Source: Gemmatimonadota bacterium (lineage in GTDB: Bacteria; Gemmatimonadota; Gemmatimonadetes; Gemmatimonadales; Gemmatimonadaceae). Taken from it: DNA of 54,645 nucleotides. The stretch spans positions 1 to 54,645 of the forward strand of contig PMYN01000118.1 of the NCBI GenBank assembly GCA_003171215.1, in the 5' to 3' direction. The notes under the pieces are model-generated. The model saw only the letters and a list, made by a program, of their open reading frames with translations, searched no databases and was not told where the DNA came from. Each line of letters starts with the position of its first letter. The stretch's first letter is position 1. Positions 39,840-44,692 of this stretch are shown here, in pieces. The position numbers and the translations under genes were made by a program.

Positions 39840-39913
39840 GGGCCATTAGCTCAGGTGGTTAGAGCGCACGCCTGATAAGCGTGAGGTCCGAGGTTCAACT
39901 CCTCGATGGCCCA
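39840..39913 (+). tRNA. tRNA-Ile (anticodon GAT)
   Basis: A full cloverleaf is visible. The acceptor stem is GGGCCAT (39840-39846) with ATGGCCC (39906-39912) and discriminator A39913. The anticodon stem is CACGC/GCGTG around CTGATAA, with GAT at 39874-39876. The T arm ends the molecule. CCA is not encoded. Two partial copies of its 3' half lie downstream (39950-39968 and 44669-44692). Confidence 0.96.
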
Positions 39914-39949
39914 TTGATTAAGGAAGTCGTTGCCCTCGCGGGGCTCGGG

Positions 39950-39968
39950 TCAACTCCTCGATGGCCCA
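39950..39968 (+). repeat. Duplicated 3' end of tRNA-Ile
   Basis: Nineteen bases identical to tRNA positions 39895-39913 (TCAACTCCTCGATGGCCCA) recur 55 bp downstream of the original. The following bases also echo the sequence after the tRNA (GTTGCCC..CGC), so a segment of about 55 bp may have been duplicated, or an attachment site left behind. Confidence 0.85.
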
Positions 39969-39985
39969 CTGACATGCAAGATGTT

Positions 39986-40027
39986 GCCCCGCTGAGCGAT
40001 GTTGCGCTCGGCGGGGCATTTCATTTT
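39986..40027 (+). terminator. Terminator after tRNA-Ile region
   Basis: GCCCCGCTGAGCG (39986-39998) pairs with CGCTCGGCGGGGC (40005-40017), leaving one T-G wobble, around a 6-nt loop. It is followed by a T-rich tail (ATTTCATTTT). This is the clearest intrinsic terminator in the window. Confidence 0.8.
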
Positions 40028-40078
40028 GTGATGAACGGAACCGTGCAGGTGAACTCGGGGTGAACTCGCCAATGAGCT

Positions 40079-41169: not shown

Positions 41170-44100
41170 ATGAGAAGCAGGGTGTTCAGGCTGGCAGTCG
41201 CCGCGTTCGCGGCGCTCGTCTTGTGGCACACCGTGGCAGAGGCGCAGGTCACCACCGGTGCAATTTCAGGTACGGTGACGGGGCAGGGCGCGGGCCCGGT
41301 ATCGGGCGCTCGCGTCACTGCCGTACACGAACCGTCCGGAACGCGTTACCTCGCCATCACCCGCGACGATGGCCGCTTCAACCTTCCCGCCGTTCGCGTC
41401 GGGGGTCCGTACAAGGTCACCGTGCAGCGCATCGGATTTCAGCCCGCGTCAAGGGACAGCGTGGACGTCGACCTTGGCGTGACCACGGAGCTGGCGTTCG
41501 AGGTGGGTTCCTCTGCGGTCACGCTGCAGGGCATCTCGGTAACCGGCGAAGCCGGCACGTTCAGCTCCGCGCGCACGGGCGCCGCCACGCAGGTGAGCGG
41601 CGAGGCCATCGCCGCGTTCCCGACCATCAACCGCCTGTTGACCGACTTCACGAAACTCGCCCCGCAGGCGTCGGGTTCATCGTTCGCCGGCATGAGCGCG
41701 AATTACAACAACATCACGATCGACGGCGCCTACTTCAACAACTCCTTCGGCCTCGCGAGCCAGCCCGGCGGCCGCACCGGCGTCTCGCCCATTCCAATCG
41801 AGGCCGTGGACCAGATACAGGTGAACATCGCGCCATTCGACGTGCGCCAGGGCTGGTTCGTCGGCGCCGGCCTGAATGCCGTGACGAAGAGCGGCACGAA
41901 CGAACTGACCGCCACCGCCTATTACAACGAGCGGAATCAGGACTACGTCGGCAGCAAGATCGACGGCGTGCCGTTCAACCCCGGTACGCAGAGTTTCCAG
42001 CAGCGAGGGTTTGCGGTGAGCGGCCCCGTCATCAAGAACAAGCTCTTCTACTTCGTGAGCTTTGAGGACGACAAGTTCGACGTCCCCGCGACGACCTTTC
42101 TCGCCAACACCGGCAGCCAGACAATCGCGGGAAACACCACGCGCGTGCTGCAGTCGGACCTCGACGGTGTCAGTTCGTTCCTGGGGTCGAAGTTCAACTG
42201 GGTATCGGGGGGCTATCAGCAGTTCAACAACGAGACGCCGTCCGCGCGGCTGCTGTACCGGATGGACTGGAACATCAATGACCGGAACAAGCTCAGCTTT
42301 CGGTACAACAAGCTCGATTCCGACGGCGACAACCTGATCTCGAATTCCACGTCGCTCGGCGCGGGCAACCGTCGTACGAACCTGAACGCGATGTCGTTCC
42401 AGAACTCGGGCTACTCGATCCTCGAGAACATTCGATCGGGCGTGGTCGAACTCAATTCGCAGCTCACGAACAACGTGTCGAACAACCTGATTGTCGGGTA
42501 CACCATGAACGACGAGAGCCGCGGCTACAAGAGCCCGCTCTTCCCGACGATCGACATCCTGAACAACGGCACCGACTACATCACGGCCGGCATGGATCCG
42601 TTCACGCCGGACAATCAGCTGCGCTACCACACGTTCCAGCTCCAGGACAACGTGACCTTCTATCGCGGCAATCACGCGATCATGGCCGGCGTCACCTACG
42701 AGAAGTATCACTCCGATAACGTTTTCTATCAGGGCGACAATTCGGTGTACGTGTACAACTCGCTCGCGGACTTCTACACCGATCTCAACGATTACCTGGC
42801 CCATCCCAACCGGACGACCTCGCCGATCAAGCTGAATCACTTTCAGGTGCAGTACATCAATGTGCCCGGAATGACCCAGCCCCTGCAGCAGCTCGACGTG
42901 CAAACGTATGGTGGCTACGTGCAGGATGTGTGGCGCGCGTCCTCCAGGCTGTCGGTGACCTTCGGCTCGCGAATCGACATCGTGACGTTCGGCAACACCG
43001 CGATCGAGAATCCCGCTGCCGCGCTGCTCACGTTCAACGATGAGAACGGGAACCCGATCCATCTCCACACCGGCGCATTGCCGGCCACCAAGCCGCTGTT
43101 CTCTCCCCGCGTCGGCTTCAACTGGGACATTCGCGGCGACAAGAAGACGCAACTTCGTGGCGGCACGGGCGTCTTCACCGGCAAGCCGGAGTACGTCTGG
43201 ATTTCCAACCAGGTCGGCAACAACGGCATGCTGACCGGCGCGATCGACGTGACGAACACGAGCGCGTATCCGTTCAATCCCGATCCGAACCACTATCACG
43301 CGCTGAACGTCACGGGCCAGCCCGCGGCGAGTTACGCGATCAACGCTACCGACCCGCATTACTCGTTCCCTCAGCAGTGGCGCACCGACCTCGCCGTCGA
43401 TCAGCGGCTGCCGCTCGGGTTCATCGGGACCGTCGAGTTCATCTACGGGAGGGACATCAACGGGCAGTACTACTACAATGCCAATCTTCCGGCGCCGGCC
43501 GGGAACATGACGGGCGCCGACACGCGGCCGTACTGGAACACCGCGAACTTCGCCAATCGCATCAACGCGAACATCACGAGCGCCATCGTGATCAAGAACG
43601 AGAACGTCGGCTACAACTACTCCGAATCGGCTTCGCTCGAGCGGGCGTTCGAGAATGGATTCTACGTGAAGGCCGGCTTCAACTACGGCGTGTCGAAGAA
43701 CACGCACGATCCGGGCTCGACGGCGGCGACGAACTGGGGCTCCAACCAGATTCAGGGCAATCCGAACCAGTCGCAGCTCGCGTATTCGTCATTTTCGCCC
43801 GGGCACCGGGAATTCCTCGCGCTGTCGTATGGCCACACGTGGTTCAACACCGGGCGCACCACGATCTCCCTCTTCAACGAGGGCTTCACGCAGGGCAACG
43901 ACAGTTACTGGTTCAGCGCCGACGCGAATGGCGACGGGCAGACGAACGACTTGATCTACATCCCGCGAAACACGGGCGAGATGAATTTCGTGCCGTTCAC
44001 GGCTTCCGGGACCACGTTCACCGCCGCGCAGCAGGCGGCCGCGTGGGAGGCGTACATCGAGCAGGATCCGTACCTCAGCAAGCATCGCGGCCAGTACGCG

Positions 44101-44430
44101 CAGCGCGGCGCGGTGTTCCTCCCCGAACTGTTCCGCACCGACCTCAGCATCTCGCAGGACATTGGCGTGAAGCTGTTCGGCAAGCGGAACAGTCTCGAGG
44201 TGCGGCTCGACATCCTCAACTTTGGCAACATGCTGAACAATCGCTGGGGCGTCTCGCAGCGCCTCGTCAGCGACCAGCCGCTGATCCCGAAGGGCCGGGA
44301 CGCGAGCGGCGCGCTGACGTACAACCTGCGCAACTTCGGCACGCAATTGCTCAACACGACTTTCCAGAGCAACGCGGGACTGACGGATGCTTACCGTATG
44401 CAACTGGGCTTCCGTTACACGATGCGCTAG
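41170..44430 (+). CDS. Oar-like TonB-dependent outer-membrane receptor
   Basis: The 1086-residue protein has a signal peptide (LAVAAFAALVLWHTVAEAQ) and a carboxypeptidase-regulatory-like domain (GAISGTVTGQGAGPVSGARVTA to TVQRIGFQPASRDSVDV). A plug follows containing NNITIDGAYFNNSFG and VDQIQVNIAPFDVRQGWFVGAG, then a large barrel ending MQLGFRYTMR. The length and plug resemble Oar-type receptors, whose ligands are mostly unknown and may include peptides or proteins. I chose the ATG at 41170, since the upstream part of the frame encodes no signal. A perfect 13-bp terminator follows. The gene lies between the tRNA-Ile and its displaced fragment at 44669. Confidence 0.87.
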   Translation: MRSRVFRLAVAAFAALVLWHTVAEAQVTTGAISGTVTGQGAGPVSGARVTAVHEPSGTRYLAITRDDGRFNLPAVRVGGPYKVTVQRIGFQPASRDSVDVDLGVTTELAFEVGSSAVTLQGISVTGEAGTFSSARTGAATQVSGEAIAAFPTINRLLTDFTKLAPQASGSSFAGMSANYNNITIDGAYFNNSFGLASQPGGRTGVSPIPIEAVDQIQVNIAPFDVRQGWFVGAGLNAVTKSGTNELTATAYYNERNQDYVGSKIDGVPFNPGTQSFQQRGFAVSGPVIKNKLFYFVSFEDDKFDVPATTFLANTGSQTIAGNTTRVLQSDLDGVSSFLGSKFNWVSGGYQQFNNETPSARLLYRMDWNINDRNKLSFRYNKLDSDGDNLISNSTSLGAGNRRTNLNAMSFQNSGYSILENIRSGVVELNSQLTNNVSNNLIVGYTMNDESRGYKSPLFPTIDILNNGTDYITAGMDPFTPDNQLRYHTFQLQDNVTFYRGNHAIMAGVTYEKYHSDNVFYQGDNSVYVYNSLADFYTDLNDYLAHPNRTTSPIKLNHFQVQYINVPGMTQPLQQLDVQTYGGYVQDVWRASSRLSVTFGSRIDIVTFGNTAIENPAAALLTFNDENGNPIHLHTGALPATKPLFSPRVGFNWDIRGDKKTQLRGGTGVFTGKPEYVWISNQVGNNGMLTGAIDVTNTSAYPFNPDPNHYHALNVTGQPAASYAINATDPHYSFPQQWRTDLAVDQRLPLGFIGTVEFIYGRDINGQYYYNANLPAPAGNMTGADTRPYWNTANFANRINANITSAIVIKNENVGYNYSESASLERAFENGFYVKAGFNYGVSKNTHDPGSTAATNWGSNQIQGNPNQSQLAYSSFSPGHREFLALSYGHTWFNTGRTTISLFNEGFTQGNDSYWFSADANGDGQTNDLIYIPRNTGEMNFVPFTASGTTFTAAQQAAAWEAYIEQDPYLSKHRGQYAQRGAVFLPELFRTDLSISQDIGVKLFGKRNSLEVRLDILNFGNMLNNRWGVSQRLVSDQPLIPKGRDASGALTYNLRNFGTQLLNTTFQSNAGLTDAYRMQLGFRYTMR

Positions 44431-44535
44431 AGGCGACCTGCGCAGGCCCCGGGAGGTTCGCGCGATTCTGGCGTGAACACCGGGCCTGCGACGCGACGGA
44501 ATGGAGCGCAGTGCGTCGTTGGCACTGCGGCAGGG

Positions 44536-44580
44536 AGAGAGCCAACGACCCGGGGTGGGCCTCGTTGGCTCTCTTCCTGT
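44536..44580 (+). terminator. Intrinsic terminator of the Oar-like receptor gene
   Basis: A perfect 13-bp stem (AGAGAGCCAACGA 44536-44548 with TCGTTGGCTCTCT 44562-44574) with a 13-nt loop is followed by TCCTGT. It lies 105 nt past the stop. The rest of 44431-44713 holds no gene; it contains the tRNA fragment at 44669-44692. Confidence 0.75.
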
Positions 44581-44668
44581 CATGGGCGCCTCCCCGATCG
44601 CGCAAACCGCAGCGCTCACGCTTCCGTGGTGTCCATTCGCGCGCACAATTGCTGCGCAGTCAGAAGGG

Positions 44669-44692
44669 CCTGATGAGCGTGAGGTCCGAGGT
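44669..44692 (+). repeat. Displaced fragment of tRNA-Ile (anticodon arm to T stem)
   Basis: Twenty-four bases match tRNA-Ile positions 39871-39894 with one substitution (A39877 to G44675). The flanks do not match the tRNA, so this is not a functional tRNA. It ends exactly where the other fragment (copy of 39895-39913) begins in tRNA coordinates. Confidence 0.85.

What the first reader, a model, noticed from the sequence alone, without database searches (positions are those of the whole stretch)
39840..44692. tRNA-Ile flanked by two complementary pieces of its own 3' half, 37 bp and 4.8 kb away
Seen directly: 39950-39968 repeats tRNA positions 39895-39913 exactly, and 44669-44692 repeats tRNA positions 39871-39894 with one mismatch. 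The two pieces abut perfectly in tRNA coordinates (39894|39895) but lie in swapped order around a 4.7-kb segment holding an S1/P1 nuclease and an Oar-like receptor. Joining the two ends of that segment (44692 to 39950) would recreate a 43-nt copy of the tRNA 3' half, the usual form of an attP. A short TCGGG also borders both ends (39945-39949 and 44692-44696). Inference: the segment is, or was, a circularising or integrating element or a rearranged island scar. No integrase is visible.
Basis: partly seen in the sequence, partly recalled or inferred. Interest (0 to 1): 0.72.

Follow-up and report, generated by a model that had tools for sequence, protein, structure and literature searches.

The report
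Decayed gene cassette at tRNA-Ile hotspot
The two tRNA pieces mark the ends of a small, worn-out piece of mobile DNA that once inserted itself at an isoleucine tRNA gene; related bacteria carry many similar inserts at the same gene, so this one is a member of a known kind, although in an undescribed group of elements.

Summary
Bases 39950-39968 repeat tRNA-Ile(GAT) positions 56-74 exactly. Bases 44668-44692 repeat positions 31-55 with one mismatch. Neither occurs by chance. 'Integrating element or scar' is supported. 'Two complementary halves that rejoin at 44692/39950' is not.

In related Gemmatimonadaceae this tRNA, beside typA, is an insertion hotspot. Copies of its 3' half (positions 29-32 to 74, starting at the anticodon loop) lie 1-21 kb downstream, often in arrays. 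A ~130-bp left arm with two repeated sites (~133 and ~38 bp before the core) is shared across genera, while the cargo between copies differs. Full elements carry a 420-aa tyrosine integrase next to the tRNA; most short units (1-8 kb) do not.

The window's 4.75-kb unit (S1/P1 nuclease plus Oar-like protein) matches this family at both ends. It is decayed: no integrase, a 93-bp deletion in the arm, a substitution in the core, and the 3' part of the att lost.

The 19-nt copy beside the tRNA belongs to a separate 54-67-bp module. Relative G014 has three of these and also a complete 44-nt distal copy.

A relative 94% identical up to the tRNA diverges right after it. Closest parallel: Dehalococcoides ssrA island arrays with integrase-less members.

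The parts
39840..39913 (+). tRNA-Ile(GAT), intact; attL / integration target. Inferred crossover region is the anticodon loop CTGATAA at 39872-39878
39914..39968 (+). 55-bp module: 36-bp spacer plus 19-nt copy of tRNA positions 56-74 (39950-39968). Homologous module three times after the tRNA and once after the distal att in G014, and once in G045
39985..40018 (+). terminator-like hairpin after the 19-nt copy (probable tRNA terminator)
40109..41023 (-). cargo gene: S1/P1 nuclease (PF02265)
41005..44430 (+). cargo gene: Oar-like outer-membrane protein (CarboxypepD_reg and OMP_b-brl_4)
44629..44667 (+). remnant of the integrase-binding (P) arm: fused arm motif GTGTCCATTCGCGCGCACA at 44629-44647, 40 bp before the core; in relatives two motifs lie 132-134 and 38 bp before it, so about 93 bp are deleted
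44668..44692 (+). decayed distal att (attR): tRNA positions 31-55 with A to G in the anticodon-loop core; positions 56-74 lost
44693..54645 (.). further accessory DNA (LysR, ADH, DUF6600, ABC-3 permease and others) with no orthologous match in close relatives G010 or G014; probably more of the same variable region. Contig ends at 54990

Best explanation
The segment from the end of tRNA-Ile (39914) to 44692 is a decayed, integrase-less integrative element of a family that inserts into the anticodon-loop region of tRNA-Ile(GAT). The mechanism is inferred: a tyrosine integrase supplied by an autonomous relative binds a ~130-bp arm, which carries two repeated sites, next to a 44-nt copy of the tRNA 3' half. 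It recombines that copy with the tRNA, so the tRNA is rebuilt at the left end and a displaced 3'-half copy marks the right end. Repeated insertion gives tandem units with unrelated cargo. This unit carries an S1/P1 nuclease and an Oar-like protein. It has since lost part of the arm and the 3' part of its distal att, and acquired a core mismatch, so it is probably immobile. The 19-nt copy at 39950-39968 belongs to a separate small tandem module found next to att sites of this subfamily. Shown: both end structures, their homologues elsewhere, the border at the tRNA, the integrase in full elements, its absence here. Inferred: trans-mobilisation, crossover point, immobility.
For: Copies of tRNA-Ile positions 29/32-74 occur 1-21 kb downstream of the tRNA in many relatives, often in arrays. 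Window 44640-44692 matches the arm plus core of G014 at 89% over 53 bp. The arm motif lies at a fixed 132-134 bp before the core in G006, L145, G019 and G045 (twice) and at 40 bp in the window. The window arm aligns with the G014, G006, G045 (C128 copy) and G010 arms above all 500 shuffles; the G045 C15 copy ties with one shuffle. Junction modules of 120-266 bp are shared at 77-96% between units with unrelated cargo, even across genera. Full elements in G045, G029 and G032 carry a tyrosine integrase beside the tRNA/att. The window and G010 are colinear at 94% up to 39915, where homology stops. The left-end 55-bp module also matches G014 and G045.
Against: The distal att keeps only 25 of 44 nt, and the same break at position 55 recurs in own contig C65 and in G010 C69, which simple random decay does not explain. 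No integrase for this site was recognised in the window's genome: nine PF00589 genes, none on this contig; the C138 protein is only 31% identical to the G045 integrase. No excised circle or strictly empty site in a same-species genome was seen. The genome is a 162-contig assembly.
Confidence: 0.87

Rival explanations
1. One reading: the element used a T-loop crossover; its ends are 39950 and 44692, and joining them re-creates a 43-nt attP.
For: The two pieces abut at position 55/56 in the T loop, and T-loop crossovers are a recognised class (Islander, PMC4383910). T-loop breaks recur in C65 and G010 C69.
Against: Relatives with complete distal copies start at positions 29-32, not 56. G014 has both the 19-nt modules and a complete 44-nt distal copy, so the two pieces are not halves of one site. 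The TCGGG flank is at background frequency.
Confidence: 0.06
2. A still mobile, integrase-less unit (cis-mobilisable element) excised in trans by a helper integrase.
For: Integrase-less units with complete att sites are common in relatives.
Against: Core mismatch CTGATGA, loss of the 3' part of the att, and a 93-bp arm deletion.
Confidence: 0.07
3. A non-mobile scar: tandem duplication and drift of the tRNA 3' end by slippage, without any integrase.
For: G014 has a perfect three-fold 54-bp tandem array, which fits slippage for the proximal module.
Against: Does not explain the conserved arm, the array of 44-nt copies, or integrases beside the tRNA in full elements.
Confidence: 0.03
4. The repeats are a functional tRNA-derived RNA feature, as in the E. 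coli tyrT / rtT repeats (recalled, not retrieved).
For: 19-nt tRNA-end copies lie between the tRNA and its terminator.
Against: Present at only 4 of 84 tRNA/att sites; no Rfam match beyond the tRNA; does not explain the distal copy.
Confidence: 0.02
5. Assembly artefact at a repeated tRNA fragment.
For: Draft assembly; contigs of several relatives end at or near this tRNA.
Against: Both ends have homologues in independent assemblies, with matching structure and diverged sequence.
Confidence: 0.02

Closest known systems
Dehalococcoides ssrA genomic-island arrays (PMC3146451)
   Same: Tandem islands downstream of one RNA gene, bounded by direct repeats of its 3' end; integration genes next to the left end in some, 15 islands without any, proposed there as cis-mobilisable elements.
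   Different: There ssrA, 20-bp repeats and serine recombinases; here tRNA-Ile, ~44-nt repeats starting at the anticodon loop and a tyrosine integrase, with smaller, often one- or two-gene units.
tRNA/tmRNA genomic islands with anticodon-loop (A) crossover (Islander, PMC4383910)
   Same: Rebuilt tRNA at one end, displaced 3' fragment in direct orientation at the other.
   Different: Islander requires an integrase in each island; the window unit has none.
Additive flexible genomic islands with repeats of the last 20 bp of tRNA-Lys in Methylophilaceae (PMC10872708)
   Same: Variable-size, variable-content islands marked by repeats of a tRNA 3' end.
   Different: Another tRNA, repeats of only the last 20 bp, no arm described in the passages read.
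Integrons / CALINs
   Same: Arrays of short units with unrelated cargo and a shared junction, moved by a recombinase from elsewhere (analogy of function).
   Different: No attC hairpins and no IntI shown; the junction is a tRNA 3' half with arm sites.

Membership tests
tRNA-targeted integrative element (tyrosine integrase, anticodon subsite) | Intact target tRNA at one end | tested here: met
tRNA-targeted integrative element (tyrosine integrase, anticodon subsite) | Displaced tRNA 3' fragment in direct orientation at the other end | tested here: met
   25 of 44 nt remain, 1 mismatch; complete copies in relatives
tRNA-targeted integrative element (tyrosine integrase, anticodon subsite) | Integrase gene inside the element | tested here: not met
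   No PF00589 on the window's contig and no tblastn hit of the G045 integrase; present in relatives. So the unit is filed as a remnant / non-autonomous relative, not as an autonomous island
tRNA-targeted integrative element (tyrosine integrase, anticodon subsite) | Arm-type sites at fixed distance from the core | tested here: met
   Fixed spacing in relatives; fused by deletion in the window
tRNA-targeted integrative element (tyrosine integrase, anticodon subsite) | Synteny with close relatives ends at the tRNA | tested here: met
Cis-mobilisable element (CIME) | No recombination or transfer genes | tested here: met
   Only two cargo genes
Cis-mobilisable element (CIME) | Functional flanking att sites | tested here: inconclusive
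   attR is damaged; function not testable by sequence
Integron / CALIN | attC sites and IntI integrase | not tested
   No dedicated attC or IntI search was run; the junctions seen are tRNA halves
E. coli tyrT / rtT repeats | rtT RNA family match | tested here: not met
   Rfam at gathering threshold finds only the tRNA

The most novel reading that the evidence does not exclude
Gemmatimonadaceae keep an integron-like reservoir at tRNA-Ile(GAT): arrays of one- or two-gene units that share an arm plus a 44-nt att module and are collected and exchanged in trans by a dedicated 420-aa tyrosine integrase carried by larger autonomous elements.
Probability: 0.3. Interest if true: 0.6.

Novelty: new member of a known kind. 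Interest (0 to 1): 0.4.

Why it matters
It explains a puzzling pair of tRNA fragments and identifies a recurrent insertion hotspot in a poorly studied phylum. If the short units are moved in trans, the site would be a natural system for collecting single genes, comparable to integrons but built on a tRNA att site. The paper search found no description of tRNA-Ile arrays in Gemmatimonadota, within a library that lacks most subscription journals.

Tried and rejected
Chance: rejected. TCGGG as target-site duplication: at background frequency. The 24-nt fragment as a widespread unrelated repeat: only three close copies in the genome, and homologues elsewhere are mostly tRNA-linked. The pattern TGATNAGCGTGAGGTCCGAGGTCGGGCT (truncated att plus CGGGCT) is found in no other of 118 family genomes sampled; that sample did not include G010, whose C69 has a related break. 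More att copies right of 44692 to the contig end: none above shuffled level beyond one weak minus-strand match (13.5 against a null of 11-12). A conserved chromosomal gene right of the element shared with G010/G014: none found. A search for literature on rtT gave nothing useful.

Full report
Observation. The distal match is 25 nt (44668-44692) with one A-to-G change inside the anticodon loop. Shuffles never give either match. The TCGGG strings are real but at background frequency.

Genome context. The window lies on contig C136 of a 4.14-Mb, 162-contig assembly. TypA places it in Gemmatimonadaceae; the nearest record is MAG Chersky.15_25, handled here as G010. Window 29026-39915 is colinear with G010 at 94% nucleotide identity, and the match stops at the tRNA end. 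The next 14.7 kb of the window has no orthologous match in G010 or G014, only diverged paralogues and the att itself.

The hotspot. In a search of 40 relatives, many carry partial copies of this tRNA, mainly positions 29/32-74. Examples: G014 at 3.6 kb, G006 at 3.2 kb, G020 at 4.4 kb, G021 as an array, G029 as elements about 17 kb apart, and small units of 1.0-1.6 kb in L145, L156 and L177. The left boundary of these copies lies at the anticodon loop, which is the A subsite of Islander; that the crossover is there is inference. Most copies are followed by terminator-like hairpins, as the tRNA itself is (sequence, read by eye).

The arm. Left of the core, G014, G045, G006, G008, G021 and G019 share an arm. 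Its outer motif GTGTCCATTCGCGCGCACA lies 132-134 bp before the core in G006, L145, G019 and twice in G045; an inner repeat lies at 38 bp in G045. The window has one such motif 40 bp before its core. The simplest reading is a ~93-bp deletion between the two repeats (inference). The window arm alone, without the core, exceeds all 500 shuffles against G014, G006, G045 (C128 copy) and the G010 unit; one G045 copy ties with one shuffle, and C113 is not significant (5 of 500). Whole junction modules are shared between units with unrelated genes and between genera.

The integrase. In G045 the tRNA is followed by a 420-aa tyrosine integrase and an arm plus att 18.4 kb further on. Related integrases sit beside the tRNA or att in G029 and G032, and a 58-aa remnant in G021. 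In G047 and G144 an integrase also lies beside the tRNA/att. The window has none. The G045 element carries an HTH protein, an AAA ATPase with a subtilase, and an ABC ATPase; no structural phage genes were seen among the ten proteins scanned against PHROGs.

Short units. Units in relatives hold one to a few genes: MacB/FtsX permease, M29 peptidase, protein kinase, beta-lactamase fold, glyoxalase, epimerase. The window unit holds an S1/P1 nuclease and an Oar-like protein. This makes an integron-like reading possible but not proven: no unit was caught moving.

The proximal piece. A second copy of the tRNA's last 19 nt follows a tRNA or att at only 4 of 84 sites: window tRNA, G014 tRNA (three times), G014 distal att, G045 C128 att. 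All others score at chance level. The four spacers look homologous by eye, and longer alignments link them. G014 has these modules together with a complete distal att, so the window's two pieces are not halves of one split site.

Unoccupied sites. In several more distant Gemmatimonads (L169, L179, L182, L183, L186, L203) no tRNA copy is found downstream and the genes after the tRNA are shared between them in part. These are the nearest thing to empty sites found; none is from the same species.

What stays unexplained. The distal att breaks at position 55, in the T loop. The same break occurs in own contig C65 (followed by the same CGGGCT) and in G010 C69, where a 44-nt insert is followed by the rest of the tRNA end. 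A second, T-loop-specific process is possible. C65 also shares a CocE gene end with the sequence 1.2 kb downstream of the tRNA in G010, so C65 may belong to the same region.

Verdict. A decayed, integrase-less relative of a family of tRNA-Ile elements. It works like a tRNA genomic island and resembles the integrase-less members of the Dehalococcoides ssrA arrays. New member of a known kind.

Noticed in passing
L003 1501-1522 (G000 C65:22713-22734); L093 118-202 (G010 C69); window 44692: Three att-like copies break at the same T-loop position 55; in G010 the rest of the tRNA end follows after a 44-nt insert. The recurrent T-loop break is unexplained.
   Followed up: partly
L077 2205-2331 (G014): Perfect three-fold 54-bp tandem module carrying the last 19 nt of tRNA-Ile.
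   Followed up: partly
G000 C113:128012-128067 (L256): Another degenerate arm plus core in the own genome (80% over 56 bp); the arm alone is not significant.
   Followed up: partly
L148, L149, L154, L159, L161-L164, L171, L173, L174: In other Gemmatimonads the contig after typA runs into 16S rRNA-like sequence and ends there, instead of a lone tRNA-Ile (read by eye).
   Followed up: no
L253 8236-11624 (G045): Adjacent AAA ATPase and subtilase-family genes in the autonomous tRNA-Ile element; possibly a defence pair (recalled, untested).
   Followed up: no
L090 (G021 C15): Att copies in both orientations on one contig that holds no tRNA-Ile in the part read.
   Followed up: no
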